Assembly: GCA_016748015.1 (NCBI GenBank)
Contig: JAAOMT010000436.1
Location: 1,603,596-1,667,595 of the forward strand
DNA length: 64,000 nucleotides
Reading direction: 5' to 3'
From: Geosiphon pyriformis
Lineage: Eukaryota > Glomeromycota > Glomeromycetes > Archaeosporales > Geosiphonaceae
Shown: positions 370 through 57,827 of the stretch, piece after piece
How positions within the stretch are numbered: the stretch's first letter is position 1
Layout of the letters: each line of letters begins with the position of its first letter
The notes under the pieces: model-generated
Seen by the model: only the letters and a program-made list of their open reading frames with translations
The model's database searches: none
Told to the model about the DNA's origin: nothing
Position numbers and translations under genes: made by a program

Positions 370-1909
370 ATGCAAAAGCGTAATTTTTTCTTTATAATTT
401 TTTTTACTAGAGGAATTACGTTTGCTTTGATACAATTTTCTTTGCTTTTATTAGCGACACCAATAGACAAAAATTTAAATTTAAAAGAATTAACTTTCAC
501 TGATTCTAGTTTCGATGATTATACTTCTTTAAAAGAAAATCAAAATTTCTTAGGTTTAAGTAAAGATGAAAATATTGAATTTAAATCAGTGAATGAATTT
601 AATAATTCGGGACAAGAAATAAGTTTCATTAATAATTTATTAGAAAACCCAAATATTACTGATAATTACTTATTATTAAGTGAAAAATCATTATATGAGA
701 CCCAAAAATTTCCCTCAGATTCATTAGAAACCAACTTTCTTGATTCAACGAATGATCAATCTCTTATTTTTAACACGCAACAGGAATTTGAAAATAATCC
801 TTCCTCTGAGTTTTTATTGGCAGGAAATGAAAAAATGAAACCTGAAGATAAGGTAATAGATAATGATCAGAAACCTTATTTGATGAAATATGCGGTCTCA
901 GCCGCCGATGCATATTGTGATCCAAGTGCTATTCAACTCTCGGAAAATATTTTTGGTATGTCAAGGAGTACTAGTACTTTAAAATTTCTAATTTTTTCAC
1001 ATATTTATTATGATTGAAAGTGATGTTAAATAATTTATTACGTTGAAAAATCTAGTCGTCTGGGATCTTCAAGAGCATGGTATAATTATCAAATTTAGAG
1101 CCAATGAAACAAAATTAGGAGAGTATATGTATCGGAAAACTGAATTAATTGATTATGAACATAATTATCCTGGAGCAAAAGTATTATTTTCAAATTTTTA
1201 AGATTTTTAGACTTTTTTATGCAAAGACAGCTTAATTTTTTTTAAAAAATAATTTTTAATTGATTGTTAATTAATAGGTTCATGCTGCTCTTTATAAAGA
1301 ATTTAGAGAAAAAGCAGGTTCTAAATTTTTAGAACAAATCATGCCATTAATTAAAGTTAATGATGATTTATTTAGAACTTATTTAGTTGGACATAGTTTA
1401 GGTGGAGGTAAGTTTTAAATTTTCACAAAAATTTAAACAAAAAGATAAAAAATTCTCATTTTTTTATTTTTTTTATTTTTTATTTTATTTTATTTTATTT
1501 TATTTTATTTTATTTTATTTTATTTTATTTTATTTTATTTTTTTACAAAGCTTACGCCCAATTTGCAGCATTACTCTTGGTTGATAAGTTTCCTGAAATG
1601 ATTCAACCAGACGTTTATACTTATGGATCACCACGTATCGGAAATATGGCTTTTGCAAGATACGCGAAATCCCAAATTCATTTACTACGTGTGACGATCT
1701 CCAATGACGAAATCCCACGATACCCTGTTCGTAATCATCTTATCTTTGGATTTACTGGGAACATTTATGAGCATTCTGGGGTTGAGTATTGGATTGAAGA
1801 ACCGGGGGGTCCGAATATAATTGTTTATAGGTGTACACCACAAGAGAGATCTTATGAGAGTAAGGTTAGTTAATGTTCGCCTTTCTCATTATATATTTGA
1901 TTTATCGTT

Positions 1910-1941
<32 letters not shown>

Positions 1942-2085
1942 ATACTAACAAACATCTAATTGTTCATAAAACTAAATTAGTCATGTGTTAATAAAATGGA
2001 ATACAGCGTCATAAAATATCATAACGGACCTTACTTTAATATGATGATGAATACTTGCGAGGGTTGGACAAAAAAGTTACATTAA
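370..2085 (+). CDS. L1: secreted class-3 lipase-like hydrolase with intact Ser-Asp-His
   Basis: Five exons join in frame: 370-955, 1056-1180, 1278-1407, 1551-1864 and 1981-2085, all GT-AG, giving 419 residues. Residues 5-30 are hydrophobic and look like a signal peptide, followed by TPID and an acidic, Asn/Ser-rich linker to about residue 180. AYC near residue 185 starts the lipase core. The nucleophile elbow GHSLGG puts Ser at 277. YGSPRIGN follows at 305-312, Asp333 sits in SNDEIP, the GVEYW motif is as in fungal feruloyl esterase A, and His399 lies in HNGPYF in the last exon between two Cys. Family knowledge: class-3 lipases hydrolyse acylglycerols or aromatic esters outside the cell; the substrate cannot be told from sequence. 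It has an extra phase-0 intron (1181-1277) not found at that place in the other members, and intron 3 carries a TTTTA microsatellite. Well supported model. Confidence 0.9.
1475..1541 (+). repeat. (TTTTA)n microsatellite in L1 intron 3
   Basis: A run of TTTTA pentamers fills the polypyrimidine tract just upstream of the AG acceptor at 1549-1550, so length changes here could affect splicing of L1. Confidence 0.9.
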
Positions 2086-2387
2086 TAGGAAATTTTATTT
2101 TATTCTTTTAAATTGATGAAAAAAAATTTTTTTTTTTTTTTTTCTTTAATCGATCAAACTATTCATGCTTCGTCTAAATTTTTATAGTAACAATATATAA
2201 TATTTTCCAAAGAAAATCAAAATTATGACTTCTTTATTTAACATATCATAATATATATAATAAATATTAACTTAAAAATTTTTGCATTCAAAAAAAAAAA
2301 TTTATATTAAAAAATTTTATTTTGTAGTAAATTTTAAAATTAGTTTTACAAAAGTTTGAATTTTTTTTTATGAATTAATACTTGAAT

Positions 2388-2427
<40 letters not shown>

Positions 2428-3262
2428 GATAATTTAAAAATTTTTCTCAACAAAATTCTAGAATTTTATCTTAAATATCAATTTATTTCTTATTACCTGA
2501 TAATATAATAATTGATTAAATAATTAATTAAATAATTAATAAATTATTATTATTTTAAAAATTTTATCTTTGTGAGGTTGATACGAGAATGATAAGCTGA
2601 AATAAACGAGAAAACAGATTGCCCCTTCTTAACATGAGAGCTATGTTGGTTGATCAAGAAGTTTCACGATGGGTGTTTAACTCAAACCAAAAATGTTACA
2701 TAATCGAATTTTAAGTTTTTGAATTTGAAAACTTTTTTGTTTTTATCATTTATATTTAGGATTTTCATTTCAACATTCTAACTCAATTCTTTTAAAGCCT
2801 ACCCAGATTTTAATGTTTTATTTTGCTATAGCTGTTAATAATTGACTTAAAAAATAATGGTTATCGATTTAAACTTAATGATGACCCTCATCCACCAATG
2901 GAACCACAGCATATCTTCATCAAATGTAATACTAAATATATAATAAAAATTGCAATTTTTCATCCAAATATTTACGCATGTAGTCAGATATAAAGGAAAC
3001 ATATGATCTTAAATAAAGCATACATGATATTCAAAGTCTTGATTAATATTTTTAATTGCAATCAGATTGTAAAAATTTCTCTTTTTCTTTAATTATCAAC
3101 AATTATTCAGTAACCAAAAAATTTTTTATTTATTCAAATAATTTTCAATTCTAATTAAAACTTTATTCATTTGATTTTTTTAGAGTTAATTTATAAATTA
3201 TTTAAATATTCTATATTTTGGAAAAATAAATTTTATTGTTGTATTTTGAATATAATTATTAC

Positions 3263-3310
<48 letters not shown>

Positions 3311-3363: not shown

Positions 3364-4781
3364 TTATTCATGACATTCGCCCATCATTCTACCAAAATAT
3401 GGTCCCTTATGTTCTTCAAAGTTCATCGGATGTTGCATGTGCCAATTATAATTACAGTCCTGAACAAAACAGTGACCTCAAATTTCAGTCTTTTTAGCGA
3501 GTTTAAATATGAAATTTTTTCGCAAATGCTTACCAAGTTCTCCATAGTCATTCCACCTTGCTTTTTCGAAGGACATTGATAAACATTATATTTTGCTGGT
3601 GTATTTTCACAATTACAATTCAATTCGTTGGAAATCCAATATTCAGTTTCATAATGTCGATATCCATCTTCTAATCTTGGTGACTGAACGACATAATCAC
3701 CTAAATTTGTAACGCGAAAAATTCGAAATATATTTCCTACCCATTCAGCGAAATAATGATTGCCAATGCGTGGTTGCCCGAACGTGACCACTGTGATCGC
3801 TGCTTCAGGTCGTTTTTTATAAAATGATAAAGCTGTTAAGGTTGCCCAAACTGCAAAAAAACAAAAAAAAAACAGAAATTTAATCAATTTTTAAAAAATA
3901 CAAATTTTGCAACTAAACTTTTACTTTAAACCTACCACCCCCTTCTCCATGTCCAGTAAAATAAAACAAAGTTTTCTTTAATACTTTATCATCCAAAAAG
4001 CCAGAAACTAATTCTGCTAGGCGACGTTCAGCGTTTCCAATAAATCGAAAGTAAAATGCTGAATCAATTTTCACTTCTTTCGGAACATTATCCCCCTCAT
4101 ATGGACCTAATCTTGATTTCTTGTTTGAAATAGTATCCTTGTGTAACTCATACCCTTTGAAATAAATCACAATCTTGTCATGTATATCGTTGTCTCGTCT
4201 TTGAAGTTTTATCGCTCGCGCTACGAAATAAATTACAGAAATAAAAAATGTGATCGAATTTAAATTTTTTGTTGAAATATTTTAGTCAAAATACCAAAAA
4301 TTCCATCTCCATATCCAAAATCATTTAAACAATAAGCTTGTTGTGCGTATCCGGCAAATTCTTCAAGAAATTCCAATAATTTTGTATTTACAATTTTCAC
4401 CTTGTGTTGGTCATATCCCTTATTCTTTACAATTTTTCTATTACGTTTTTCTCGTGAATTTAAAGAATTCTTTTGTGTTATTGATATTAAAGCTGATTTC
4501 CAAGCTTTTTGATTTAATTGTTTCTTTAAATTTATAGCTGAATAATTTTTTTCAATTGACCTTTCTTCTATTTGAATTTTAGATAAATTATGAATTTTAT
4601 TCTGGTCCAATCTTCTGCCCAAGTCAAACTCTTCGAATTTGTCATTTAGCCAAAACTTTTCTCGTACCAAGTTATTCCCACACAATTTCAGCAAAAAATA
4701 TATCATCATTAGCGAAAATATCCAAATTTTTATCCATTTAGCTTTTTGAAATATCTTATAACAGAACTTTAAAGATTTCAT
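3364..4781 (-). CDS. L2: membrane-anchored lipase-3-like pseudoenzyme (Ser to Gly)
   Basis: Four exons on the minus strand (4781-4295, 4220-3936, 3850-3534, 3459-3364) encode 394 residues with intron phases 1, 1, 0. A Lys-rich N-terminus and a hydrophobic segment at about residues 17-34 predict a type II signal anchor. AYCLND opens the lipase core and VIYFKG is the strand before the oxyanion loop. The elbow reads GHGEGG, so the nucleophile position is Gly254. FGQPRIGN, Asp309 (in LGDYVV), the ETEYW motif and His380 (HKGPYFG) are all present. With the Ser absent, ordinary lipase chemistry is not expected, yet frames and splice sites are clean, which argues for a retained non-catalytic role such as ligand binding. 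L2 converges on L1. Confidence 0.88.
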
Positions 4782-6212: not shown

Positions 6213-7415
6213 CTATTGGGAATTACACGTCATCAGAACACCAAAGTAGAAATTTTATGTTTCTACTCATAACCTAGTTTCTTTTTGTTTACACAAACCT
6301 ATAAACAAAGATGCTAGATATTAGATTAAATTCATGATAAAGGGTAATGCTTGTGTCTCTGAAATATATCTCAAATGCAGAAACGAAATTTAAATGTTCT
6401 TACATCACTCTCCAATTCTCCATTTTTACGTAAACACTTGAAGGTTTTATAGACGTCATTTACTCTATCTGACCAAATTTCTTCTCCGAAATGAGAATAA
6501 TAATTACTCCAATGTCTAAAGATATTGCTTAAATGTGGGGCTGTTGCAACATCATCATTGGTGATTGTAGCTCGTATCAGCCGAACTTTTTCATTAGCAT
6601 ATTTTCCGAAAGGAATATCCCCAATTCTTGGAAGTCCATATGTATATATCATAGGTTTTGGTAGATCAGGTATTAATATTGTGATGATAAGTGCTCCTAG
6701 CGTTGCCATTACTTTTATATAAGGTGGTTTAATAAATTAATTGAAAAATAGAATAATTGGATATGCTAATAAGATTCAATTCAGATATACCTCCTCCCAA
6801 ACTATATCCAACAAAAATTACCTCATTTAGAGGCTTTGCTTTGTTCATCCAGTTTAAAAACAGTTCAAGAAATTCCTTATAGACTTGTAATCCTGCTTAG
6901 CTCAATTCTTTGTGAATGAAAATAAGATCGGAAAGAACTTTTTCATCTGCAGCGAATGTTACCACATTTTTTCCTTTTCTGATATCCGGCTTAACCTTTA
7001 GAAAAAAATGAAAATTTAGCCAAGTTTTAATATCAATAAATTCAAAAATCAGGTATCAGAAGTTTATAATTTTTAAAAATAAAATGCTGGAACGAAATAT
7101 AAAAAGTTTCTACCATAAATATTTTAGACAGCTTGGTTGAATTTGTGTGACAGAGTGCTTGCCTCGCAAATGGCGCATACATAAAAGATTATATGCATCG
7201 GCCTAGGAAGTGTCAAGTTTTTGATACATCAAGTACAGGTTCGTCTCCATCCGCTAGAAGTAATTGATTATAATTTAAAGATGATAGATTATCTATTCCA
7301 ACTGTATCTGGCTTTGTTTGAAATATTTCTTCATTTAACGAGCTCGAAACAGGATTCTGAACATTAAACAAATTAGGAACTGATGAAGTGGATGTCGGAA
7401 GCGAATATACTATTT
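6213..7415 (-). pseudogene. L3: pseudogene copy of L4 (lipase-3)
   Basis: This is the duplicated sibling of L4, matching it exon for exon. It is broken several ways. The first about 200 bp of exon 1, including the start codon and signal peptide, are deleted. There are single-base indels in the rest of exon 1 (for example an extra T near 7220). Exon 2 has an in-frame TAA beside a deletion around 6875-6905. The last exon has a TAG where L4 has the Trp codon before the catalytic His. The central exon (about 6711-6404) still reads open and the elbow GYSLGG is still recognisable at about 6790-6815, so the decay is recent relative to the array. Confidence 0.88.
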
Positions 7416-8137: not shown

Positions 8138-9559
8138 CTATTGGGAATTACACGCCATTAAAACACCAAAGTAGGGACCTTCATGTTTCCACCCATAACC
8201 TAGTTTCTTTTTGTTTACACAAACCTATAAACAAAGATGCTAGATATTAGATTAAATTCATGATAAAGGGTAATGCTTGTGTCTCTGAAATATATCTCGA
8301 ATGCAGAAACGAAATTTAAATGGTCTTACATCACTCTCCAATTCTCCATTTTTACGTGGACACGTGAAAGTTTTATAGGCGTTATCTACTCTATCTGACC
8401 AAATCTCTTCTCCGAAATGAGAATAATAATTACCCCAATGTGTAAAGATATTGTTTAAATGTGGGGCTGTTGCAACATCATCATTGGTGATTGTAGCTCG
8501 TATCAGCCGAACTTTTTCATTAGCATATTTTGCGAAAGGAATATCCCCAATTCTTGGAAGTCCATATGTATATATCGTAGGTTTTGGTAGATCAGGTATT
8601 AATATTGTGAGGGTAAGTGCTCCAAGCGTTGCCATTACTTTTATATAAAGTGGTTTAATAAATTAATTGAAAAATAGAATAATTGGATATGCTAATAAGA
8701 TTCAATTCAGATATACCTCCTCCCAAGCTATATCCAACTAAAATCACCTCATTTAGAGGCTTTGCTTTGTCCATCCAGTTTAAAAACAGTTGCACAAATG
8801 CATCTTTTATATATAAAAAGTGTGCAAGAAATCCTTTATTAACTTTTAATCCTTTGATATTTGGTTTAGGGATGAAAGAGCTCAATTCTTTGTGTTCGAA
8901 AATAAGATCTGAAAGAACTTTTTCATCTGCAGCAAATGTTACCACAATTTTCTCTTTTCTGATATCCGGCTTGACTTTTAGAAAAAAACAAATTTTAACC
9001 AAGTTTTAATATAAAGTTTAAAATTTTAAAAATAAAATGCTGGAACGAAATATAAAAAGTTTCTACCGTAAACAATTTCAGACAGCTGGGTTGAATCTGT
9101 GTGACAGAGTGCTTGGCTCGCAAATGGCGCATACATAAAAAGATTATATGCGTCGGCCTGGGAAGTGTCAAGTTTTGATACATCAAGTACATGTTCGTCT
9201 CCATCCGCTAGAAGTAATTGATTATAATTTAAAGATGATAGATTATCTATTCCAACTGTATCTGGCTTTGTTTGAAATATTTCTTCATTTAACGAGCTCG
9301 AAACAGGATTCTGAACATTAAACAAATTAAGAACTGATGAAGTGGATGTCGTAAACGAATTAATTGGCGTGAAAAGATTGTCATCAGAGCCGGGACCGTT
9401 TTTAAGGTTTGTTATTAGTTCATTATTATTAGCGTTGAAATCATCTAACGCTAAACCATTTGTTTCCAAATCTATTGGCTTGCTCTCGACAAGTAGATTC
9501 AAAGCGTAAGACGCTGCAAAAATCGAAAATATTCTTAATCCTAAACACACTTTCAACAT
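8138..9559 (-). CDS. L4: secreted class-3 lipase-like hydrolase with intact triad
   Basis: Four exons (9559-9067, 8974-8717, 8637-8330, 8224-8138) give 381 residues, phases 1, 1, 0. The N-terminus (about residues 1-26) is a signal peptide ending near VES, followed by KPIDLE and an acidic linker. QALC opens the core and TFAADEK occupies the oxyanion-loop strand. Ser247 lies in GYSLGG, YGLPRIGD follows, then Asp303 in TNDDVA and His367 in HEGPYFG, flanked by two Cys in the last exon. Acceptors before exons 2 and 3 are AAAAG rather than CAG/TAG, but the frame is continuous and L8 splices the same way. Extracellular ester hydrolysis is the family expectation; the substrate is unknown. It is the intact partner of pseudogene L3. 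Confidence 0.9.
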
Positions 9560-12153: not shown

Positions 12154-13636
12154 TCACTTTTTAGAGCAGTCCATTAAAGTATTGTAATAAGGTCCATTAT
12201 GTACGATGAACAACCATCCTTGCCAATAATTATTGATACATATCTGAAATCACAAAAAAATAGATAAAGATGAGATAATCACAAAAAAATTAATTGCCTC
12301 TTAAATAAACATACCTTGCTCTCAAGTTGACCCTTTAATGGATTACAAATAAAAGTTTTCTCTTCATCCTTCACCTTCTTTACCCAATACTCAACCCCGA
12401 AATGAGAATATAGATTATCCCAATGATAGGGAATAATCCTCGCTGTTGGGCTTCTAGGGACATCGTCATCTTTATATGTAGCTCGTACCAGTCGAATTTG
12501 TTTCATGGCAAATTTGGCAAATGGGACATCTCCCACTCTCGGAGTGCCAAATGTGTAAACTACTGGTTTTGGTAAGGCCGGATATTTATTCCTCACAACC
12601 AGAGCAGCAAATATAGCGTAAACTATTTTGAAACAATAAAAGTAAAAGTAGGTTTAGAGTAATTACAAGTTATTATTATATAATAGAATCAGAACTTGAA
12701 CGAAGTCATAGATAAGCACTTACCACCGCCTAAGCTAAATCCTACAAAATGAATCTCTTTTACTTTTTTTGCTTTCGCAATTAACTGTGAAAAAAGTTTA
12801 AGAAACGGGGCCTTAGCCGGTAAAAAGCCTTCAAGGACAACCGAGCCGACTTTTAACCCTTCAATATTTGTTATATTATATTTGGATAGCGCGGTCTGGC
12901 TGTAAAGAGTATTTCGTAAATCTTTTTCGTCCCCAGCAAATGTAATCAAGATCTTTTCTTTTACGAAAGTTTGAACTTTCAGCAATGCATTTTTAAATGA
13001 ATTCATTTTCAAAAATTATTAAGAATAATACTAAAAGCATATTAGAAATTTATATTTTAAATTTTATAACAAAAATTTACCAGATATTTTATTGGAAAGC
13101 GCAATTTTTTCTTTACCGCAGATTACTTGCTTTGCTAATGGTGCATATGAGATCAAATTTTTTACATCCGGATTTGATTGATTAGCTTCAACAAGAACCT
13201 CTTTTTCTGGCGAATTTTTGAGTTCATCCTTTGCGAATAAAGAGTCAGCCTCTTCATTGCTATACATCGTATCCAAAAGAGGCTCATTGTCCGCATCCGA
13301 AAATACATTAGGCAATTCTGACTCTATATTAGAAGAGATGAAATCAGCTCCTGTTTCTGCATGATTTTCGACAAAGGAATTTTCTTCGCTAACAGCTGGA
13401 TCTCCAATCAATGATAATTCAGGAATGACGGACTTTTCAGAATCAACATTGAGATATGAATCCGAATCATTCCACAATTCCTTCTCTTCTTGGACGTCGT
13501 CAAAGAAATTTAATTTCTGTTCAGTTTGTAGTCGTTTTTGTGGATTAAGAGAAAATTCAACAGGGTTTGATTCGACTACGAATTGAAAGACTAGGCAATA
13601 GATGAATACAGCACAAAAAATTTCAAATCGCGCCAT
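12154..13636 (-). CDS. L5: secreted class-3 lipase-like hydrolase with intact triad
   Basis: Four exons (13636-13081, 12975-12724, 12622-12315, 12243-12154) give 401 residues, phases 1, 1, 0. An in-frame ATG exists upstream at 13714, but the one at 13636 places a clean signal peptide (about residues 1-22, ending near VVES) followed by NPVE, as in L4 and L8, so I chose it. A Glu/Asp/Ser-rich linker runs to about residue 165. The core has ITFAGDEK, Ser266 in GFSLGG, FGTPRVGD, Asp322 in KDDDVP, GVEYW and His387 in HNGPYYN. It is the most divergent of the four Ser-containing members in the linker. Secreted esterase/lipase activity is expected from the family; the substrate is unknown. Confidence 0.88.
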
Positions 13637-15540: not shown

Positions 15541-17042
15541 TTAAGATTGGTTACAATGACCCATTGTAACACCGAAATATGGACCAGTATGAAAAAAAGT
15601 GTCTGGAACATTTCTTATTGATTGCCCAGAATTGCAATTCTAAAGGAAATTTTTTAGAGTTTAAAATAGTTGGATCATTGAAAAAAATCTTTTAGAAGAT
15701 AAAGACAAAGATAAAACTAACCAAATTCTCTTGATAGTTTCTTCCATCACCCCATTTTCGTCTGTGTTTCACCGGGATCGAAGAAAAATTACAGTCCCAA
15801 TATAGATAAGAATTATAATTTACATCATCAGGGCAAACACAGTTTTTTAATGGCTCAATCCAAGTTTCAACCCCGAAATGTTTGTAATCCATTGAAGACG
15901 AAGGAAAGTGTGGAACATGATCATTTCCATGGGTAATGCGGTTGTAACGAACTATTCTGTTTAATAATTTACTAAAGTGGCTATTTCCAACTCTTGGGGC
16001 TCCAAAAGTGGTAATTTCACATGCTATTTTATTCAGATTAATCTCAGGCCAAAGATTAAAATTTCCAATCCTATATCTTTCATAGGTCCATCGAACCCCA
16101 GCGATTGATGCATATGCTAGAATTTCGTAGATATTTTAAACATTTGAAATATAAATAGGTGACTTTTATTCAAGTAAAAAAATTTTAACAAACCTCCACC
16201 AATACCATGCCCAATGAAAAAAATGTCTCTAATACTCTGGGTTGCATTCAAAAAGATTCGCATACTTTTTATTAATTTCTGAAATACTGATTCCAAGGAT
16301 TCGAACATTATTTTATTAACGCTGGCTGCATCGTCAGATATAGGGAATCCTTCAAGTTTAAATGAAATTTGTGTTGAATTTAGAGAAGACCATTGTAATT
16401 TTGTAAATTTCTAAAAAATTAGAAAAACTTTATTATTTAATATATATATATATATATATGCTAGCAAAATTCTTATTTGTTTGAGTATTAAGAAAATATT
16501 TACAGGTCCCGTAAAAATTACAAGCAGACTGCTATAAGACGGCATTCGCTTTAAAATCCCAAAATCAACTATAAAGTAAAATCTAGGCTGTTTTATTAAT
16601 ACTTTTTTATATCAATTCAATAAGTGTCACATTTAAAGTAAATAAAACCTCTTAAATCCCAAAGAGACCTTCTGAATTCAAATTCATTATTGTAGAGGCA
16701 GTATCGATTATTGATAGATGAAGCAAGCTGTTGATAAAAGAGCAAATATTCAGTTCCATCAATTATTGGTCTTTTGAAAAATGATTGTGAGCGTTTTAAT
16801 CTCTGGTCAATTTTTAAAGGAACTTTGAATTGATTTGTCCACATTTTTAGGTTAGAATAGCTCTGATTTGCATCCTTTTTTAACGAAATTTTGAAATACT
16901 TGATTTGTTCAGAGCCTATCAAACTTTTTAAATTGATACTGAACAAAATATAAAATGCTAATGATATAAAAATTAAAATAGCAAATTTATTTTTTATCAA
17001 ATTTTTGAATTTGCATGTGTTTAAGTTTGTGGAAGGGATCAT
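15541..17042 (-). CDS. L6: anchored lipase-3-like pseudoenzyme (Ser to Gly), five exons
   Basis: Exons 17042-16649, 16568-16504, 16410-16194, 16116-15722 and 15639-15541 give 389 residues, phases 1, 0, 1, 0. A hydrophobic segment at about residues 20-37 after a Lys/Asn-rich N-terminus predicts a type II anchor. The small exon 2 encodes LLVIFTGP, the strand before the oxyanion loop. The elbow reads GHGIGG, placing Gly222 at the nucleophile. FGAPRVGN, Asp291 (GNDHVPHFP), GVETW and His374 (HTGPYFG) are kept. It belongs to the same five-exon subfamily as L13, L15 and pseudogene L14. The frame is intact over all five exons, so the lost Ser is not simple decay. Confidence 0.88.
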
Positions 17043-23463: not shown

Positions 23464-24992
23464 TTACTTAGAGTTACACTTCATAAGAGTTCCAAAATAG
23501 GGACCTTGATGACTCCACCAAAATCCTTTCCAATGTTTATTTATACAAATCTAAAAGATATAAAAATGTTTGGTTATTATTAAGAATATCATAAAAGGCA
23601 ATACATTGTTTTTTCAAAGATTCTAAAATTTTGAAATTATGTTAATATTATTTTCAAAATAATCTTACCCCACTCTCCAATTCCCCTTCAACAGGCAAAC
23701 ACCTAGAAATTTTGGAGCCTTCAATCCAATACTCCTCCCCGAAATGAGAATAATAATTACTCCAATGGTTTTTCAACAGATCTCTATAAGTTGGGGATCT
23801 TGGGATATCATCAATCCCATTTGTAGCTCGTATAAGCTTAACTTTTTCGTTAGCGTATTTTGCAAAGGGGATATCCCCAATTCTCGGACTTCCATAGGTA
23901 TAAACATTAGGTTTTGGTAGATTAGGTAGTCGAACGAGAAGTGCTGCTAGTGTCGCGAATACTTTGAAGAAAACATTGGAAATGAAGAAAATTTTAAATC
24001 CTTTAATTTTGACAATAACAATAACAATAACAATAACAATAACAATAACAATAAAAATAACAATAACAATAACAATAACAATAACAATAACAATAACAAT
24101 AACAATAAAAATAGCAATAACAACAAATAAACGATAATAATAATAATGAGCATTAAAATTAAAAAAGACCTACCTCCTCCGAAACTATAGCCAACAAATA
24201 CAAGTTCTTTCAAAGGGTTTATTTCACTTTTCCAGGTTATAAAAAGTTTGAGGAAGGCATCTCTCATTTTAACAAACTGCAAATACCAGCCTTTGTTGAC
24301 TCGGAATTTTTGAGCATCAAATGTAACATCTATAAATGCTTTATGTTTAAGAAATTCTTTAGCCTTTTCTTCGTTCGCAGCAAATGATATTACAAGTTTG
24401 TTTTTGAGGACTTTCCGAGTAACTTTTGACAAAAAAAAACAAAAAAAAAACAAACAATTTTAATTAATTTTAATATTCAAACTAAGCATTAAAGTTTGAA
24501 ATTCAGAACTTAAAAATAAAAAATATACCATAAACTTCATCAGAAAGTATAATCCTTTGATCACATATTGCTTGCTTTGCTAATACCGCATACGAACGAA
24601 GGTTCTCTATATCACGGTAGTATGTGTTACCAGTTTCGTCATAAATTTGAACGTCTGTTGGAATTTCAGGTTGATCGGCTACTCCTGCAAGTAACTGATC
24701 ACTGCTTGAAGACGATAATTCATTAGCCCCAACTATATTTGCCATATTGTATACTTGATTTGTATCTGATAACTCATTTTCTGATTTGTTCGAATCAAAA
24801 TTTTCGAAAGGCAATTTATCAAGAGAGGATGACAATTCTCCATCACCTAGATTTGAATAGGTATTAATTGCCGTGGAAAACTCGTAATCAGTACCAGTAT
24901 TATCAGAGGATAGGTCTAATTCTTCGGGAGTCACATTTATATTTCCAGATTCAGCTTTAATGTCAGGAATATTCTCAAGGACTGTTGTTGAT

Positions 24993-25041
<49 letters not shown>

Positions 25042-25189
25042 CAATATTGAAATCATATGAAGAAGCCGTATTAGAAACTTGGGGATCTGTTTCCAAATCT
25101 ATTGGTTTGCTATTGACTTGAAAATTGACGAGAAAACTCAAAGCGTAAGACGCTAAAAAAATGTAAAATATTCTAAATTCTAAATACAT
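23464..25189 (-). CDS. L8: secreted class-3 lipase-like hydrolase with intact triad and poly-Asn
   Basis: Four exons (25189-24529, 24422-24174, 23961-23669, 23550-23464) give 429 residues, phases 1, 1, 0. The signal peptide spans about residues 1-28 and is followed by SKPIDLE, identical in style to L4. A run of about 15 Asn, encoded by an AAT microsatellite (about 24999-25040), lies in the acidic linker. The core shows ISFAANEE, Ser300 in GYSFGG, YGSPRIGD, Asp354 (GIDDIP), GEEYW and His415 (HQGPYFG) between two Cys. Intron 2 holds a long AACAAT hexamer repeat. It is the closest relative of L4 here and shares promoter-like motifs with it. Function: predicted extracellular ester/lipid hydrolase of unknown substrate. 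Confidence 0.9.
24008..24117. repeat. (AACAAT)n hexanucleotide repeat in L8 intron 2
   Basis: About 17 hexamers with two single-base variants lie wholly inside the intron between the elbow exon and the next exon of L8. Confidence 0.95.
24997..25041 (-). repeat. (AAT)n microsatellite coding poly-Asn in L8
   Basis: A trinucleotide run in exon 1 translates to about 15 consecutive Asn in the linker between signal peptide and catalytic core. The frame is maintained because the unit is three bases. Confidence 0.95.
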
Positions 25190-25232
25190 TTTGATAACAA
25201 AAATTTAATTTTATTCTATTGCAATTATATCC

Positions 25233-26843: not shown

Positions 26844-28684
26844 CTAATCATCACCATCACACTTCCCCATCATAACCCCTAAAAAAGGCCCTTTATGATT
26901 CTCTCCTTGTAGACTTTTCGCAGAATTGGCGCAATTCTAAAGAGGGATTTCAAAATTTTTTAAATTTTCAATCCACGTTTTAGAATTCTAGTTTCTCCCC
27001 CCACTCCCCACTCCCCACTCCCCTTTTTCAAAAAATTTAATAACACTTACAATAGACTCATGATTAAAATTCGGTGGACATTTATACAAATTTCCATCGT
27101 ACGCTATCCAATACTCAATCCCGTGATGTTGATAAAACCAAGGATAAAATGATGTAGGGAACATCGAAAATTGATCAAAAAGACGAGTTACCCGAGAAAT
27201 TGTCAATTTTTTTTGGTTGATTAACCGCCTTACGTACTTTCCAAAGATCATATCGCCAATTCGTGGACTACTATAAGTATAGACCTCTACTGGAATTTTG
27301 TTGGTCATTGATGATGAATTTTCTATGAAATGTATAGCTGTGAATTCTGCAAATGCTGAAATTAATTTTTGATAATGCCCATCATACTATTTAATATCTA
27401 ACATTTGTAATTTTAATGGATAAAATATTCACAAGAATTCTATTAAAGATTGCAAACCTCCACCGTATCCATGTCCTGTGAGGCAAATTTTGTAATCAGG
27501 ATACTCTTTAATTATTCCTGATAAATAAAACATCAATATATCAACAGAATTTGCCCAAGTCTCATATAAATACTTATCCACGCGCCGTCCAAAAGAAATG
27601 TCCTTCGAAGAATTGATACTAGCCCGTGGGTATTTAGTATAAGACGGTAACAATATTAACTGTTGATACCAAAGAGCTTCATTTCCTCTGAAATAAAGAA
27701 TTATCTCTTTTGCTTCTTTATCTTTCATAATTTTTGCTGGTGTTTCGAGATGAATCATTTAATATTTGAAGAGATGCAAGAAAAAGGCAGGCATGAAAAT
27801 TTCGAAAATTGAAAACCTTGAAAATCTTGTAAATCAACATCCATGTTTTGACAATAAGCTAAATTTGAAAATTTTGCAAATCGCTTCAATCTTCCTAAAA
27901 AATTTGTATCTACTACTTTCTTGACGTTATCCGGTAACGGTGACGAGCTTGGGAAACTTAATGGACTGTCAACATCTCCTTTTAAAGAATTTAATGGATC
28001 ATAAGCTATTTCTAAATAGGATATTCCCATTTCATCGTTATGTCGATTGTCTTTGGATTGTTTAAGAATTTTGTTGTTTTCAAAGTCAACTGAATATGAT
28101 TTAAAATGTTGGTTCGGTTGAAAATCTTTATCAAGAGGTTGATAATAATAGGGCAAAGTAAACAAGGGTTTCTGTTGAATCCGGTTGTTTATTAATTGAT
28201 TGTTAACAATTTGTAAATTTTTCTCGCTGAACAACTGCTCAATGTTATTGTTTAAAACTAAATTTGAGTTATATATCTCGTCCTCTTTAGGGATATAAGG
28301 GACAAGAGTATCTGCCTCTGATTCCAAATTCCAGGAACAGGCACAAAATTTAATAATATTGAAAGGCCATTGATCTCTAAACAATTTGTTGTCAACTTTT
28401 TTAGGGGATTCACGAGCTAAAAGTTTTTGGAATTCAGTTTCAGTTTTTTTTATGGTTTTGTTGAATTTTTTGTCCATATTAAATGCGGTTTGAAGAGGTA
28501 AGCTAGAAATATGGGACTCTTCTGACATTCCAAGACACAAAAATTTCCCGAGAATGCAGAATATAATCATAGAAAATAAAAAAAAATATAAAGCTGGAGA
28601 GTTATAAAAGTGGAATCGAGAAGGATATCTAAGATTCAACATTTTGCAACAGTGAAATCGAGAAGAATATCTAAGATTTAACAT
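26844..28684 (-). CDS. L9: anchored lipase-3-like pseudoenzyme (Ser to Gly), long N-terminus
   Basis: Four exons (28684-27817, 27736-27458, 27355-27051, 26936-26844) give 514 residues, or 500 if translation starts at the second Met (28642). The first 28 residues are a 14-residue motif repeated twice (MLNLRYSSRFHCCK, then MLNLRYPSRFHFYN). A hydrophobic segment at about residues 32-52 predicts an anchor, and a linker of about 220 residues follows. AYCQ opens the core. The strand LYFRGNE is followed by GHGYGG with Gly379 at the nucleophile. YSSPRIGD, Asp443 (RLFDQFSMFP, a poorly conserved context), GIEYW and His498 (HKGPFLG) follow. It is the largest and one of the most divergent Ser-less members. 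The intron 1 acceptor (ACCAG at 27741-27737) is chosen from phase and alignment. Confidence 0.83.
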
Positions 28685-30941: not shown

Positions 30942-32490
30942 ATGGCAAATACTGGTAAAGGTAAACGATTTCGGCCATCAGCAAGCGTCAAATCAAAAGC
31001 ATTATCCTTGTCTTTTTTAATCGTTTTCTTACTTTACTTTTTCGCTATTCTCTTATCAAAAATTCAAAATAAACGTCTCACTCGGAACATTGATACTAAA
31101 AATGATTCAACTCAAATTTTTCAAAGAACCCCTCCTCTTCGCACTCTTGTTTCGAATTCTTCAATCAATTATCAGCTTAAGTCAATATCTCCATTTCTAT
31201 ATGTAAAGCTACGACGACATAACTCAAGGAATTTACCATCTAATTCTTCTGGATCAAACTCAAATCTGCCAAGAACCCATCCGATGAAACAACCATTTCC
31301 TATAAGTTACAATCTTGAAGCTTTTTTTCGTCAAATGGCGACGTTTGCTAATATGGCCTATTGCTGCCCTAATAATGGGGTGGGAAAGTTTGTTACGCGA
31401 GGTGATGTAAAAGGTATTAATTGAATGTTTAAAGATTTATTTCTAACTAGAGATCATACAATCCAAATCTTTCTAACAAAAAAATAATTTTCATCTAAAA
31501 ATTAAACCCTATAGCTGACGTAATATTAGATCAAAAAGAGAATTTTATTGTGGCAATTTTCAAAGGACCACTACTATCTAAATCACAATGGGAAAAACGT
31601 GAAATTGTGATGGTTCCATATAACGTATTGGGGAAACCAAAAAATTCTCTTATACGTGTAGACAAGATATGGTATGAAGATGTGATGTCAATGCGTTCTG
31701 AAATGTTTACAAAAATAGAAAGGGGAGTTCGTTTGACACCTGAGAGACGTAGGTTATTGTTTGTCGGACATGGTGTTGGTGGTGGTAGGTCTTTTTAAAT
31801 GTAACAAAAATTTTTGTAATATTGCGAAATCTCAAATAATTTTTGATTTTAGAATAATAAAACTTTTTTTTTCAGCATATGCGGCAATAGCTGGCCTTAC
31901 CTGGCTAATTGAAAGGGATATTGACCGTAACTATCGATCGACAAAAGGAGATAAATTGGACATTTTCACAAAAGTAATTACCTTTGGTGCACCTCGGTTT
32001 GGAAATGTTTGGCTGGCCCGTCTTATCAATAAATATAATGGAACTTTTGTAAGATTCACTTTTTTCAATGATCCGACACCCCTTTTTCCTCCGATTAAAA
32101 GTGGCAATGATATTTTATCACATCATGAAACGGAATTGTGGATTCCAATGGATAATTGTGACTGCTCAAAAATATGGCTATGTGAAGGGTTTTTTAAGAA
32201 GTCAACTTTTGATGAAACAGCTTCTAGTAAAAAAGAAGGTTTAGACGATAATCCCTTTCCAGAGGATATATTTTTTCCCTATGGTTACGAAGCGGGTGAA
32301 AATAAGGTGAATTATCTGTTTTATTTTAAGAACGTTCTAATTTGAAAAATTTAACTAAAAATTTTCAAACTACTTTTAGGAATGTAGCTCAGGTCAATCG
32401 ATTGCCAATGTCCCTCCAAATTTTTTACATACAGGACCTTATTTTGATATTGTAATGAATGATTGTTCCATGTTTGATTTTGGTTTTTAA
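30942..32490 (+). CDS. L10: anchored lipase-3-like pseudoenzyme (Ser to Gly)
   Basis: Four exons (30942-31413, 31515-31784, 31876-32306, 32380-32490) give 427 residues, phases 1, 1, 0. A strongly basic N-terminus (residues 1-20) precedes a hydrophobic segment at about 22-39, a classic type II anchor. A Ser/Arg-rich stalk follows, then AYCCPNNG. The strand IVAIFKGP precedes the elbow GHGVGG, with Gly244 at the nucleophile. FGAPRFGN, Asp313 (FNDPTPLFPP), ETELW and His408 (HTGPYFD) are present. An acidic insert of about 45 residues follows the ELW motif. It is closest to L12, with which it shares the insert ending in EAGENK/EAGENQ before the last exon. It is one of only three plus-strand lipase loci. 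Confidence 0.9.
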
Positions 32491-38683: not shown

Positions 38684-40273
38684 TTAACTAAATGTACTAC
38701 AATCCCCCATAGTGATCCCAAAATATGGGCCAATATGAAAATAATTTGGGGGAATATGATCAATAGATTGCCCAGCGTTACATTCCTAAAATATTGAATT
38801 CAAAAATTTTTAAAGATTAATGAATAATAAATTAAATTAAATTAAATTATTAACATTTTATCAACCTGATTTTCACCAGCTTCTATTCCAAATGGAAAAA
38901 AAGGATCATCTGGGAATGGATTTTCGTCATTAATCCCTTTATCATTTCTGGTTTCATTTTTTAAAAATCCATCACAATAAAAAACTTCATAATTTTGAAT
39001 TTTGTCTTTCACGGAATCATTATAATTATCGGATTTTAAACATGAACAATCTTCAAAATCGAACCAAATTTCCAATTCATGATGCGATAAAATATCTTTC
39101 CCAGATGTCACTTTTGGGAAATGTGGCATTGCATCGTTCGTATGCGTTATTCTAGCTGTAGAAGTGAATTTATTTAAAAGACGAGCAAACCCAACGTTTC
39201 CAATTCTCGGTTGACCAAATGTTATAATTTTTGTTGGAATTCGAGGTAAGATTGGACCGAAAGGAAATAAAGATGTATCTTTCTCATATAACATTGCCCA
39301 TAAGAGGCCAGAAATTGCTGCATATGCTGTAATATAATTAGATTAAGAAAATTTTATTATTTAAAATAAAAGTGATGAAAAAGATAAATTATCTTTTAAA
39401 TATAAGTACCCACCACCTCCAATACCATGCCCAACAAAAAATATTCCTTGAATTTGATTGTTTTTTCTAATTCCAGAAACAATGCTCGAAAATAATGCAT
39501 TCCTCATTTTTTGTACATGTTCATACCATTCCCGTTCAACCTTGATCAATAAATTTGCTTTTTTACTTTTGATTGGAGTGAAAGGCACTAAGTTCGTTTC
39601 CCTTTTTTCCAAATGTGCTTTTGTAAGCTCCGCTCCTTTAAACATTGCTACTATAACGTTCCCATCTTGTACGTAAATTACTTCGGCTAAAATTTTTATT
39701 GGTTAGTTTACTGTATTGTGATATAACGATTTTGAAGAGGAAAGTTGTATCTTTCAATTTTTCATTAGCATTGGTAACAGCTAATTTGATATGTATAACT
39801 TTAATACCAAATTATACCAATACATCTTAAAAATAAAAATAAAAAAAGTATAAATTGCGCAATTTCTGATTACCTCTCACATCGTCTCGCTTCACAAATT
39901 TCCCAATTCCATTATCCGGATAACAATAAGCTAAATTAGAGTATCCAGCCATGCGCATAAAAAATGTGTTTAATTTCAAACTTTTTATATCAAGTTTTCT
40001 TTTTGGTGGATATCTTGAAAAATTATTTTGATGAAAAGATCGTTTCAAATTCAAAGAATTTTTATTATATAAATTATTTTGAGAAAGTCTTGAAAAGTTT
40101 GGGTATGAGTGTGAGATCGTTGAGATAATAGATATTAAAGAACATATTAATATCCATGATATTAAAAAATATAAAAAAATTAATTGAGTTGGAAAGATTT
40201 TATAAATAGGTGAAATTTTTGAAATCTGAAAGAATGGTCTCTTTTTTACCACTCTAAGCTTCTTTTGATTCAT
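38684..40273 (-). CDS. L12: anchored lipase-3-like pseudoenzyme (Ser to Gly)
   Basis: Four exons (40273-39874, 39686-39414, 39326-38866, 38785-38684) give 411 residues, phases 1, 1, 0. The first 12 residues are basic and a hydrophobic stretch at about 28-52 predicts a type II anchor. AYCYPDNG and DNGIGKFVKR mirror L10. VIVAMFKGA precedes the elbow GHGIGG, with Gly221 at the nucleophile. FGQPRIGN, Asp289 (HTNDAMPHFP), ELEIW and His395 (HIGPYFG) are kept, as is the acidic insert ending EAGENQ. The donor after the elbow is GTGGGT, less canonical than in the siblings but the only one in the right phase. It is an inverted-orientation sibling of L10. Confidence 0.87.
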
Positions 40274-48230: not shown

Positions 48231-48232
48231 TA

Positions 48233-49587
48233 CAGGGGGGTATAAAAAGTATTGGACACTTAATATAATATATAAAAAAGGCTATATATAGTAATACCAT
48301 TACCAATTTAAGTCATAATTTTTTTTATAATTACTTATAGTTATAATCTACAAATCAACATAAATCGCGTCCTTGTAAAACACAACAGTGGATCATACGC
48401 GTATATATAAAATATCAAACATTCTTGTCATGAAAAAATTTACCACATCAAATATGTCTTGGAAAAGAACTTTCTGAATACCAAAAAAGAGGAATTATTT
48501 CAGCAATAAAGTTAGGACATACAAACAGTAAGATTTCCACGACTATTGGATGTTCACGTTCTTCTGTAATATGTGTATGGAAGTCATACGAGCTAAAAAA
48601 ACTTCCTAAAAAACGAACGGGCCGACCACAAATTCTTGACAAACGCGCACGTGAACAACTCAAATATTCAATAATGGAGAATAAAAAAACCTGCCGCCAA
48701 ACTCTTTCTCAAATACGATTGAATTTTATTAAAGATACCAACAAATCTATTTCTATACAAACTATTTAAAATGGATTAGCTCAAGAAGGACTTCGCTCGT
48801 GCATTCCTTGTCTCAAGCCATTAATTTCCAAATCAAATAAAGAAAAACATTTACAATGGGCTCGTACTTATGAAAATTGGACAGTAGAAGATTTTAAACG
48901 AATTGTTTGGTCAGATGAATCTACATATACACAATTTAGAACTACAGGATTTGGATGTGTATGACGTAAACCTTCCAAAGAGTTTCATAAGGATTGTATT
49001 GCAGCCACAGTTAGAAAAAGCTTTGGTCGCATGTTTTGGGGATGTTTTTCATGGGTTGGTTTGGGTCCTTTAGTTCCTTTGGTTGGTCATATTACTGGAG
49101 TTATACACCGCGAAACCTTGGCTAATTATACAATTCCTATGGTAAAACTTCATGCAAATAAAACTAAAAAAAAGTTTTTTTTTCAGGAAGACAATGCACC
49201 AATTTACACATCAAAAGTTGTGCGTTCTTTTCTTACCTCTTCAAATGTTGAATTACTTCCTTGGCCAGCACAAAGTTCTGATATTACTCCAATAGAAAAT
49301 CTTTGATCATATATTGAAGTTAAAATTCGTCAACGTAATTCACAACCCTCAAATATTGTACAATTGGAACGGTGGGTTAAGGAAGAATGGGATGCGATAC
49401 CTGTAAATTACTATCATAATTTGATCAAGTCTATGCCACATTGAGTTCAAGTTATTCTTGAAGCAAATGGGGGTCAAACAAAATACTAACATGTATTTTA
49501 ATATAATAATAAAAAATTAATGAATTATAAGTTAGTTCTTTTATATAACATATTATAAAAGTGTCCAATACTTTTTATACCCCCCTG
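48233..49587 (+). mobile_element. Tc1/mariner element with perfect 27-bp inverted repeats
   Basis: Terminal inverted repeats at 48233-48259 and 49561-49587 are exact reverse complements (they start CAGGGGGGTATAAAAAG). The element is flanked by TA on both sides (48231-48232 and 49588-49589), the Tc1 target-site duplication. Total length is 1355 bp with one transposase gene inside. Perfect ends beside a damaged transposase suggest a non-autonomous copy that could still be a substrate for a related active enzyme elsewhere. Confidence 0.95.
48454..49489 (+). pseudogene. Inactive Tc1-type (DD34E) transposase
   Basis: The reading frame covers the entire transposase: N-terminal helix-turn-helix (SAIKLGHTNSKIS), the GRPQ linker, WSDES with the first catalytic Asp, QEDNAP with the second Asp, and TPIENL with the Glu 34 residues further on. 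It is interrupted by a probable 1-bp T insertion just after the start codon (the 1036-nt span is 3n+1) and four in-frame stops: TAA 48777-48779, TGA 48962-48964, TGA 49304-49306 and TGA 49442-49444. The two middle TGAs sit where Tc1 proteins have Trp. A functional transposase is not expected from this copy. Confidence 0.93.
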
Positions 49588-49589
49588 TA

Positions 49590-53073: not shown

Positions 53074-53112
<39 letters not shown>

Positions 53113-55250: not shown

Positions 55251-56381
55251 TTTTCGAAATATAAAATTTTTTTGTAAGTAGATTTGTAAAAAAACCCATA
55301 ATATTATATTTTTTTCAATACAAATCTCTAACAAATAAATAGATATAGGTCTTGACTGATTTTGTAAAAAACAATTTTCAAAATTGACAGGACAAGAAAA
55401 ATTACAATTCATTCTACTGATATGGATCATCTCAGGCCATATCTTACAATATTGAGACCTTGGAGATAAGTCAATTTACAAACAATGAAGTAACAATGGC
55501 AGCGAAGAAAAAGATTTGGAGTAATTCTATAGATTTCACCAGGTGTTTTAAGAAGAAAAAGGTTACTATGGCTGGTAATATTCATGTAATGAATATTCTA
55601 AATGTTAAATGGATTCCTTCTTGCTCCTATGGTTGCAAATATATTTTAAATTTATAAGTCGTCAATCTTTCAAAAACATTCTAGAAAATATTGTTCCTTT
55701 TTTATTAGTTTTAAATTTTGATCTTTGCATTAAAATATTTCTTTAGTATCTTGGATTATTTTGGATAAAAAATTATTGTCCCATTTCGCCATATATTAAA
55801 ATATTTGAATAGTTTAAACGGTTGTTTTAATTGAAAAAGTCTTTTTTTCAATTCCTAGGTGAATCGAAATTTCTCATTTTTGAAAAGGAACTTGACATTT
55901 TATATGCAAAGTTTTAATGTTTCTCTTCACAATAGATATATTTTTTCTATAATAAAAGAAACATCAAATAAATATTCTTGGTTTTTATTAATTGCAAGCA
56001 AAAAATTGTAATTGATAAAAATTTTAACAAATATTGGATATCCAATTTGAAATATTGAGATACTAAAAGTTTGATGAATTCAAAGGTTAATTCATAGTGC
56101 TCGTGGAGATTTCTTGGCAAATTTTTCATTTTAATAATACATAAAACAACCTATTATATGTTATGTTTAAAAAAGCTTCATTGAATGCTAGCATAAAGTA
56201 TTTATATAATAGTTTAAGAAAAATAATTAGATTCAGTTATTTTTTCTATTTTTCCAAAACTTGAATGTTTAAATTTTATGAAAAATTTATAAAGAATCCC
56301 TTGAAAATGATAATTTTTATTTCTTAAAGGATATTATGAATACTTTTTTTAAAAACTTTTTTTATTTTCAATTTTACAAAA
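55251..56381. other. Interval between L14 and L15
   Basis: A plus-strand open frame at 55496-55657 (MAAKKKIWSNSIDFTRC...) has more balanced composition than its surroundings, but no motif I recognise and no splice partners. Otherwise I see nothing. Confidence 0.35.
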
Positions 56382-57827
56382 TCAAAAATTCAAAAGATTT
56401 TTACTACTACAATCACCCATTTTAACATTGAAATAAGGACCATCATGGAAGAAATTATTCGAAACATTGCCGATTGATTGTCCTGCATTGCACTCCTAAA
56501 GAGAAGTTTTTTTTTTAAAATCTATTCTGTTTGAAAGTCATTTCTTTTTTTTTAAAAAAAAAACTTACCATATTCTCACTGGCAAATCCCTTAAGCCATT
56601 TTGTTCTTTGTGTGGTTTCAAGCACCCAATTATTACAATCCCATAATGAATATGTATCATCAGGACAATCGCAATTTTTCGATGGCTCAATCCAAATTTC
56701 AAAACCAAAATGTTTTCGTCCTTTTGAAGCCAGAGGAAAGTGTGGGACATAATCATTCCCATGGGTGATGCGATGATGTGTAATTAACCTGTTTGCCATT
56801 TCACTGAATTGGATATTTCCAATTCTCGGAGCTCCAAATGTGACAACTTGTTCTCCCATTTCGCTCAAATTTACATCAGGCCAAAGATTTAAAGTATTAA
56901 TTTTATATTTTTCATAACACCATCTAATGCCAGCGATTGCAGCGTATGCTGGCATATTAGAGAAAGATAATAATAATTCAGATTTTTTTTTTATTAACTA
57001 AAAAACAAAATGATATTATTTTCCAAACCTCCACCAAGAGCATGACCAACGAAAAAAATGTAAGTCATATCAGAATTATTTTTTAAATATGTTCGTATAT
57101 TTTCTAATATTCTCGGAAGGGCAGATTCGATAGTTTTCGAGAATTGTTTAATAACACGAGCTTGACGGTAGTATACTGGAAAGCCTTCCACTCGAAATGT
57201 CACTTGTCTATCATTCAATTGCGGCCACCACATTTTTGTTAATTTCTAAAAAGGAAATAAATATATTAATTTGATGGATTATTGAAATATATTTCAGGAA
57301 ATTAGAAATAATTACTGGTCCTGCAAAGTACACGATCAAAGCCTTCAAACCTTCTTCTGCTCTTCCGTTACTTATGAATTTGACTAAAGGAGAAAAAAAT
57401 AATTTTACATCAAATTAATCTAAATCACTTATTTTTATTTGAAAAATTATCAACCATTTATGGGTCCCTTAAATGAAGGACAATACGCATCACTTGCTAA
57501 AACTGCCAACTGTTCATAAAGCGGTAATAAATTTGCGACTGGTTCCATTAATTTTTTAGCACGTGATTTAGCTCGTTTTGTGATTCGATTGAATTGTAAA
57601 GGAACTTTGATTTGATTTTTCCAATCAACTACAACAATTGGGAAACTGTGATTTACATCCTGTTTGTGGAACTTTTGAAGTTTTTGAATTTTTTGAGAAT
57701 TTTTCCAGCATTTAGAATTTTCATGCACCCAAAAGTGAAATGCGAAGGATATAAAAATTGAAAAAATAATTTTATTTCCCCATAAAAATTTGAATTTTCT
57801 TATACCAAGATCTATAAAAGAATTCAT
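56382..57827 (-). CDS. L15: anchored lipase-3-like pseudoenzyme (Ser to Ala), five exons
   Basis: Exons 57827-57455, 57383-57316, 57245-57029, 56948-56569 and 56495-56382 give 383 residues, phases 1, 0, 1, 0. A basic start (RKFKF) is followed by a hydrophobic segment at about residues 19-34, a probable type II anchor, and a Lys-rich stalk. AYCPSF opens the core and exon 2 ends IVYFAGP. The elbow GHALGG keeps Leu but has Ala216 for Ser, the only Ala replacement in the array and the one closest to the active form. FGAPRIGN, Asp285 (GNDYVPHFP), FEIW and His363 (HDGPYFN) are present. Of the Ser-less genes, this one would need the smallest change to regain the canonical motif. Confidence 0.9.

What the first reader, a model, noticed from the sequence alone, without database searches (positions are those of the whole stretch)
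370..57827. Eight of twelve intact lipase-3 genes have lost the catalytic serine but kept Asp and His
Seen directly after reconstructing exons: the elbow is GHSLGG, GYSLGG, GFSLGG or GYSFGG in L1, L4, L5 and L8. It is GHGEGG (L2), GHGIGG (L6, L12, L13), GHGYGG (L9), GHGVGG (L10), GHDIGG (L11) and GHALGG (L15). All twelve keep the [F/Y]xxP[RK]xG[ND] block, the Asp and the HxGP[YF] His, plus the Cys pair in the last exon. Fungal feruloyl esterase A and Rhizomucor lipase use Ser-Asp-His with the His in this C-terminal position, so these eight are predicted pseudoenzymes. Clean frames and splice sites over 4-5 exons argue that they are maintained. Several different replacements (Gly, Asp, Ala, and Val in L14) suggest relaxed or repeated loss at one residue.
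Basis: partly seen in the sequence, partly recalled or inferred. Interest (0 to 1): 0.9.

Follow-up and report, generated by a model that had tools for sequence, protein, structure and literature searches.

The report
Fungal lipase family without catalytic serine
The fungus Geosiphon, which houses living cyanobacteria, carries hundreds of lipase-like genes, most of which seem to have swapped the amino acid that does the cutting for glycine or alanine while keeping the rest of the active site, so they probably bind something rather than digest it.

Summary
The window is Geosiphon pyriformis (Glomeromycotina). All 12 intact genes keep the Asp, the C-terminal His and the Cys pair; 4 have Ser at the elbow and 8 do not. 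Genome-wide, an elbow-plus-splice-donor pattern hits 371 places (12 in the reversed control): 244 Gly, 53 Ala/Asp/Glu, 55 Ser. All 158 aligned relatives not named Geosiphon have Ser. Of 53 intact Ser-less models, 51 keep Asp and 47 His. The oxyanion Ser/Thr is lost too, often to Pro, and also in 25 of 30 Ser-bearing models, the window's four included. One origin of the Ser-less state is rejected; two TCA-Ser genes sit among GCA-Ala genes, so Ser was probably regained. L15's predicted structure is a full class-3 lipase fold. Best reading: secreted or membrane-tethered, non-hydrolytic lipase-fold binding proteins under purifying selection. "Pseudoenzyme" is well supported; "four active, eight dead" is too simple. 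Ligand, function and expression are untested.

The parts
370..2085 (+). L1, Ser-bearing (GHSLGG at 1389-1406), 5 exons; oxyanion motif FRAN
3364..4781 (-). L2, Ser-less (GHGEGG at 3937-3954); FKGY
   Evidence: GHGEGG elbows recur at 21 other genomic places by my reading
6371..6809 (-). L3, broken Ser-bearing copy near L4 (GYSLGG at 6792-6809); one stop in its model; outer limits not determined
8138..9559 (-). L4, Ser-bearing (GYSLGG at 8718-8735); FAAD
12154..13636 (-). L5, Ser-bearing (GFSLGG at 12725-12742); FAGD
15541..17042 (-). L6, Ser-less (GHGIGG at 16195-16212); FTGP; exon 1 placed by hand
   Evidence: NCBI P0187
22227..22550 (+). L7, fragment; no elbow exon found in the models
23464..25189 (-). 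L8, Ser-bearing (GYSFGG at 24175-24192); FAAN
26844..28684 (-). L9, Ser-less (GHGYGG at 27459-27476); FRGN; start codon uncertain
30942..32490 (+). L10, Ser-less (GHGVGG at 31766-31783); FKGP
   Evidence: NCBI P0165
34962..36577 (-). L11, Asp at the nucleophile position (GHDIGG at 35596-35613); IKGN
38684..40273 (-). L12, Ser-less (GHGIGG at 39415-39432); FKGA
   Evidence: NCBI P0001
43396..44788 (-). L13, Ser-less (GHGIGG at 44014-44031); LGGP
   Evidence: NCBI P0174
54026..54700 (-). L14, broken copy (elbow-like GHVVGE)
56382..57827 (-). L15, Ser-less (GHALGG at 57030-57047); FAGP
   Evidence: NCBI P0141, structure predicted; NCBI's exon 1 differs from mine

Best explanation
A Geosiphon expansion of class-3 (Lipase_3) fold proteins that have given up ester hydrolysis. 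The ancestral secreted lipase (Ser-Asp-His, FRG[ST] oxyanion strand) duplicated to several hundred copies. In the main clade, marked by a CxC motif, the oxyanion Ser/Thr became mostly Pro, Lys or another residue, and the elbow Ser became Gly, Ala, occasionally Asp, and sometimes Ser again. Shown here: the fold, the losses, retention of Asp and His in most members, tight constraint on the elbow, repeated change at the nucleophile position, and a hydrophobic N-terminal segment in the window genes tested. Inferred: the proteins are secreted or membrane-tethered and use the old substrate pocket to bind a ligand (fatty acid, acyl ester or similar) without cutting it, like the laboratory Ser-to-Ala mutants of the same fold that hold oleate or ferulate. 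They would then serve uptake, sensing or partner recognition, with fast-changing segments giving specificity.
Against: No ligand, assay or transcript is available. Asp and His retention is more than a binding protein obviously needs and leaves room for other chemistry. Retention is not universal: 9 domains in 8 database proteins have Asn in place of the His, one of them (P0152) with a His one residue on, and of 3 Glu-elbow models none has the His (2 are gaps there) and 2 lack the Asp. The His motif is one residue longer than in RML and FaeA, so its catalytic geometry is assumed, not measured. pN/pS of the youngest pairs is high (0.61-0.81, 4 of 13 pairs not significant), so some copies may be drifting. 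Gly models are under-sampled (22 models, 19 intact, against 244 pattern hits).
Confidence: 0.6

Rival explanations
1. Still enzymes: the retained Asp-His pair acts as a general base (activating water or abstracting a proton), or in L11-like genes the elbow Asp acts as nucleophile as in epoxide hydrolases and dehalogenases (recalled, no call), so the family catalyses a different reaction on the same scaffold.
For: Asp 50 of 50 and His 47 of 50 in the intact models of the Gly, Ala, Asp and Cys classes; elbow segment most constrained; GHDxGG or GFDxGG at 8 genomic places, one related pair sharing it (L013, L070).
Against: Oxyanion residue replaced by Pro, which has no backbone N-H, in 20 of 53. 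Asp-elbow rows do not cluster: 7 rows need 7 changes, though starred branches force only 2. Members with Asn for His persist. Of the polar columns conserved at 80% or more in the Ser-less set, the CxC pair and one Asn (0.85 against 0.38) stand out against the Ser-bearing set; that Asn was not followed up.
Confidence: 0.15
2. Decaying leftovers: a once useful lipase family expanded by duplication and is now drifting, with intact frames reflecting recent copying.
For: Broken copies L3, L7, L14 in the window; 16 of 101 modelled elbows fail the intactness filter, though that filter also drops incomplete models; youngest pairs pN/pS 0.61-0.81.
Against: Ser-less copies are at least as intact (53 of 60) as Ser-bearing ones (32 of 41, one gene counted twice), with the caveat that the profile was seeded mostly with Ser-less genes. 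Asp, His, Cys and PRxG columns stay nearly fixed across widely diverged paralogues. 9 of 13 pairs significantly below 1.
Confidence: 0.15
3. Active lipases in which another residue serves as nucleophile, or the elbow is mis-spliced in our models.
For: Asp and His are kept.
Against: NCBI models for five window genes carry the same elbow; an intronless elbow was not found with either of two patterns (0 hits each); no Ser column at or above 50%; the profile aligns GHgiGG on GHSLGG of RML.
Confidence: 0.03

Closest known systems
Fungal class-3 lipases and feruloyl esterase A (PF01764; RML, Rhizopus, TLL, FaeA)
   Different: Elbow Ser and oxyanion Ser/Thr lost; CxC motif added; His motif one residue longer (HxGPYF), a trait shared with Ser-bearing FRGT Geosiphon lipases and two basidiomycete proteins.
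EDS1, PAD4 and SAG101 (plant lipase-like immune proteins)
   Different: EDS1 and PAD4 keep the Ser-Asp-His triad (PMC9528080, passages) and carry a C-terminal EP domain; the Geosiphon proteins modelled have one domain plus an N-terminal segment, and the family numbers in the hundreds.
Clip-domain serine protease homologues such as Cotesia Vn50
   Same: Catalytic Ser replaced by Gly in a secreted hydrolase fold that still binds partners (PMC13301370, one passage).
   Different: Unrelated fold; family size per genome not compared here.
Laboratory Ser-to-Ala traps: TLL S146A with oleate (1gt6), FaeA S133A with ferulate (2bjh)
   Same: Same fold and substitution as GHALGG; both appear in the structure matches of L15.
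   Different: Engineered, and their oxyanion residue is intact (recalled).

Membership tests
PF01764 Lipase_3 (domain family) | Profile match above the curated cut-off | tested here: met
   7 of 7 proteins scanned, 53-79 bits against cut-off 22; includes P0001 = L12
PF01764 Lipase_3 (domain family) | Alpha/beta hydrolase fold with strand-elbow-helix | tested here: met
Active fungal class-3 lipase / feruloyl esterase | Catalytic Ser in GxSxG | tested here: not met
   8 of 12 window genes lack it; Ser at 55 of 371 genomic elbow hits
Active fungal class-3 lipase / feruloyl esterase | Oxyanion Ser/Thr (FRG[ST]) | tested here: not met
   0 of 12 window genes; 2 of 53 Ser-less models
Active fungal class-3 lipase / feruloyl esterase | Catalytic Asp and His | tested here: met
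   12 of 12 window genes by column; the His register differs by one residue and distances were not measured
Pseudoenzyme (no hydrolytic activity) | No catalysis in assay | not testable with these tools
   needs purified protein
EDS1/PAD4/SAG101 family | C-terminal EP domain | tested here: not met
   P0002 is 308 aa and P0141 334 aa; the lipase domain runs to near the C-terminus of both models
Asp-nucleophile epoxide hydrolase/dehalogenase type | Asp at the elbow (GHDxGG) | tested here: inconclusive
   L11 and 7 other genomic places have an elbow Asp, but they do not form a clade and the family profile places them with class-3 lipases; no Asp-elbow structure was predicted

The most novel reading that the evidence does not exclude
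A fungal symbiont of cyanobacteria has turned a secreted lipase into a repertoire of a few hundred diversifying, non-hydrolytic, membrane-tethered recognition or lipid-capture proteins. The former nucleophile position drifts among Gly, Ala, Asp and Ser while Asp and His are held, perhaps for a new Asp-His chemistry or for fatty-acid capture by a fungus that cannot make its own (that auxotrophy is recalled for AM fungi, not tested here).
Probability: 0.3. Interest if true: 0.85.

Novelty: new variant of a known kind. Interest (0 to 1): 0.68.

Why it matters
Pseudoenzymes usually come as a few members beside active relatives (general knowledge, no call). Here the serine-less form appears to be the majority of a family of several hundred genes in one genome, with the former catalytic residue moving between states inside sub-families. 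That makes it a natural experiment on how an active site is retired, reused and perhaps regained. Geosiphon is the only known fungus with an endosymbiotic cyanobacterium (recalled) and a relative of the arbuscular mycorrhizal fungi, so a large secreted lipase-fold repertoire is a concrete, testable lead on lipid exchange or partner recognition in an ancient symbiosis. It also warns annotators: a Lipase_3 match, or even a GHSLGG elbow, does not by itself predict a lipase here.

Tried and rejected
Considered and set aside: (a) a different conserved Ser as nucleophile: no Ser column reaches 50% in the Ser-less models. (b) L11 as founder of an Asp-nucleophile clade: Asp rows are scattered; kept only as a rival. 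(c) Intronless active copies hiding elsewhere: two patterns, 0 hits each. (d) Kex2-type dibasic sites in the N-terminal linker: seen in 8 of the 10 window N-termini tested, but below 0.05 by shuffling in none, so not claimed. (e) Literature: for Geosiphon with lipase, 4 papers hold both terms and none is about it by title or abstract start (listing, none opened); (listings) showed no Geosiphon lipase paper; pseudoenzyme with lipase-like and catalytic serine gave 0 papers; lipase with 'replaced by glycine' gave 1, about a protease homologue. PMC11134847 and PMC8786786 were searched for 'lipase': 0 in the main text of each. The Geosiphon genome paper is not held, so whether it notes the family is unknown. 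(f) The two-rate versus loss-only comparison and the AU test (after an unfinished run) rest on a quick tree with long branches. (g) A first regex for the oxyanion motif gave wrong reads because matches overlapped; it was replaced, which still leaves 1 of 153, 1 of 30, 3 of 53 and 6 of 65 unread. One search stopped on a formatting error after its counts; the rest was rerun. (h) The outside rows with a non-Ser letter (5 of 157) are taken as off-target regex hits, since the profile alignment gives Ser in 158 of 158. (i) Rows dropped before the counts: 16 of 101 models failed the intactness filter; L008 duplicates L056 and was removed from the tree and from the later counts.
Full report
Identity. 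The 15 homologues of L12 found in 5.8 billion proteins are all named Geosiphon pyriformis (G9A89_ locus tags); the top one is 100% identical over 81% of the query. The window is contig C330, 1603596-1667595, of a 124.7 Mb assembly in 406 contigs. Geosiphon is Glomeromycotina, Archaeosporales.

Gene models. I wrote a spliced protein-to-DNA aligner and rebuilt all genes. Twelve are intact, four with Ser and eight without; L3, L7 and L14 are broken. A per-gene table of elbow, codon, oxyanion motif, PRxG block, Asp, His, CxC and last-exon Cys is: Asp, His, PRxG block and Cys pair are present in 12 of 12. NCBI's independent models agree on the elbow for L6, L10, L12, L13 and L15. In every window elbow the exon ends right after the elbow, with the donor GT following. 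Intronless versions of the elbow were not found genome-wide (0 hits for each of two patterns).

Genome-wide census. The pattern for G-[HYFL]-x-(NTN codon)-G-G plus donor hits 371 places, against 12 for the reversed pattern. By nucleophile codon: AGY Ser 50 (control 0), TCN Ser 5 (control 2), Gly 244 (control 0), GCN/GAN/GTN 53 (control 1). I read the last class as 42 Ala, 8 Asp and 3 Glu from the listing; one of the 42 (GLAFGG) gave no convincing gene model. That leaves 19 others. So 55 of 371 are Ser. A further pattern for GH[GS] elbows whose fourth residue falls outside the first pattern adds 46 places (control 1), 42 Gly and 4 Ser by my reading, 21 of them GHGEGG as in L2 (L2 itself uses a codon that this pattern misses). 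These counts are pattern hits, not verified genes.

Sample of models. 101 elbow loci were modelled: 41 Ser (one gene twice), 26 Ala, 22 Gly, 8 Asp, 3 Glu, 1 Cys. They include 13 elbows of the window. The intactness filter kept 85: 53 Ser-less and 32 Ser-bearing. Among the 53 Ser-less, Asp 51 and His 47. By class Asp/His: Gly 19/19 of 19, Ala 23/20 of 23, Asp-elbow 7/7 of 7, Cys 1/1 of 1, Glu 1/0 of 3; 4 of the 6 missing His are gaps in the model. Among the 32 Ser-bearing, Asp 32 and His 31. In the Ser-less set the Asp column ranks 16th and the His column 27th of 268 by conservation, against a median top-letter frequency of 0.32. In database proteins 9 domains of 8 proteins with Gly elbows have Asn at the His position, 7 of the proteins from one contig; one of them, P0152, has a His one residue on. 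So the fold seems to tolerate loss of His, yet most members keep it.

Outside Geosiphon. A canonical FRGT/GHSLGG Geosiphon lipase finds Ambispora, Mucor, Umbelopsis, Glomus and other fungi; a Ser-less profile finds only proteins named Geosiphon until E 1.6e-26. Of rows aligned to the family profile, 158 of 158 not named Geosiphon (some unnamed metagenome proteins) have Ser; of 96 Geosiphon rows with the elbow covered, 82 do not, and 8 more rows lack the elbow. Only the top 120 of 408 and of 265 hits were returned, and the Geosiphon rows were found with Ser-less queries in two of three searches, so that ratio is biased. A CxC motif after ExWI marks the expansion: 50 of 53 Ser-less models, 12 of 31 Ser-bearing, 0 of 157 outside.

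Second catalytic loss. The oxyanion residue (X in FRGX; recalled as Ser82/83 or Thr68 in RML, TLL, FaeA) is Ser or Thr in 138 of 153 outside proteins, 5 of 30 Ser-bearing Geosiphon models, 8 of 14 Ser-bearing Geosiphon database proteins (mostly found with a canonical query), 2 of 53 Ser-less models and 0 of 65 Ser-less database proteins. It is Pro in 20 of 53 and 26 of 65 (by alignment column 23 of 53 Pro and 1 of 53 Ser). Pro has no amide hydrogen to donate. The four Ser genes of the window have N, D, D and N there, so they too are doubtful lipases.

History of the residue. On a tree of 105 rows with the nucleophile masked, Ser against non-Ser needs 13 changes and starred branches force at least 5. 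Holding all Ser-less rows as one clade is rejected (p-AU 1.15e-06, quick tree). A two-rate model with regain beats loss only by 13 log units. The clearest case is codon-based: two stop-free genes, L079 and L080, have Ser encoded by TCA, and the Ser-less models nearest to them (58-69% identical) have Ala encoded by GCA, one step away; they fall in a supported set of 8 rows with 4 Ala, 2 Gly and themselves. AGY is the Ser codon at 50 of 55 Ser hits. L079 keeps FKGP, so Ser there need not mean activity. The other three TCN hits do not add to this: L081 is broken, L082 lies in a mixed set, and L083 is nearest to an AGY-Ser gene.

Selection. In 13 chosen pairs pN/pS is 0.43-0.81, below 1 in all, with Fisher p below 0.05 in 9 (the pairs share genes, and one includes a Ser gene). 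Pooled by region it is lowest at the elbow (0.26), 0.37-0.38 at the PRxG and Asp segments, 0.45 at the His segment and 0.76-0.87 in three variable segments. The pocket framework is held while other parts move. Ser-less copies are no more often dropped by the intactness filter than Ser copies (53 of 60 against 32 of 41 kept), though the profile was seeded mostly with Ser-less genes.

N-terminus. Ten of the 12 window genes were tested and all have a hydrophobic stretch near the start (best 19-residue mean 1.4-2.7), read as signal peptide or anchor. L8 and L9 were not tested.

Conclusion. The interpretation grows from local pseudoenzymes to a genome-wide family, found so far only in Geosiphon, in which hydrolysis was probably given up but the pocket framework was kept. 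Binding without cutting is the most likely function. A new Asp-His chemistry and partial decay remain open.

Noticed in passing
window 48434-49306 (+): Two open frames resembling a transposase: weak HTH matches and a DDE_3 match, all below the curated cut-offs; a Tc1/mariner-like remnant by eye, in two frames.
   Followed up: partly
database proteins P0137, P0151-P0153, P0159, P0160, P0162 (one contig, locus tags G9A89_0147xx) and P0181 on another contig: Gly-elbow proteins in which the C-terminal His is also replaced, by Asn (NxGPYF), in 9 domains; P0152 has a His one residue on.
   Followed up: partly
loci L030, L042, L055 and protein P0164: Elbow Glu (GHEIGG) genes without the His (3 of 3 models, 2 as gaps; Asp in P0164) and mostly without the Asp (2 of 3 models): near-complete triad loss in stop-free genes.
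   Followed up: partly
genome-wide, e.g. C300, C218, C370 and window L2: GHGEGG elbows (Glu after the Gly) recur at 21 places besides L2, by my reading.
   Followed up: no
P0136, P0137, P0147: NCBI models of 475-652 aa with two lipase segments each (P0136 two BLAST segments, P0137 two elbows, P0147 by eye); they may be fused tandem genes or annotation errors.
   Followed up: no
window 24503-25204 (-), L8 exon 1, and the N-terminal regions of L1, L4, L5: By eye, the Ser-bearing window genes have long acidic, Asn/Ser-rich N-terminal linkers (a run of Asn in L8), unlike the basic linkers of most Ser-less genes.
   Followed up: no
column 237 of the family profile (Asn after the last-exon ECN Cys): An Asn conserved in 0.85 of Ser-less models against 0.38 of Ser-bearing ones; possible marker or functional residue of the Ser-less clade.
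   Followed up: no
window 61840-62124 (+): A 68-residue Met-started open frame with no Pfam match at E 0.1.
   Followed up: partly
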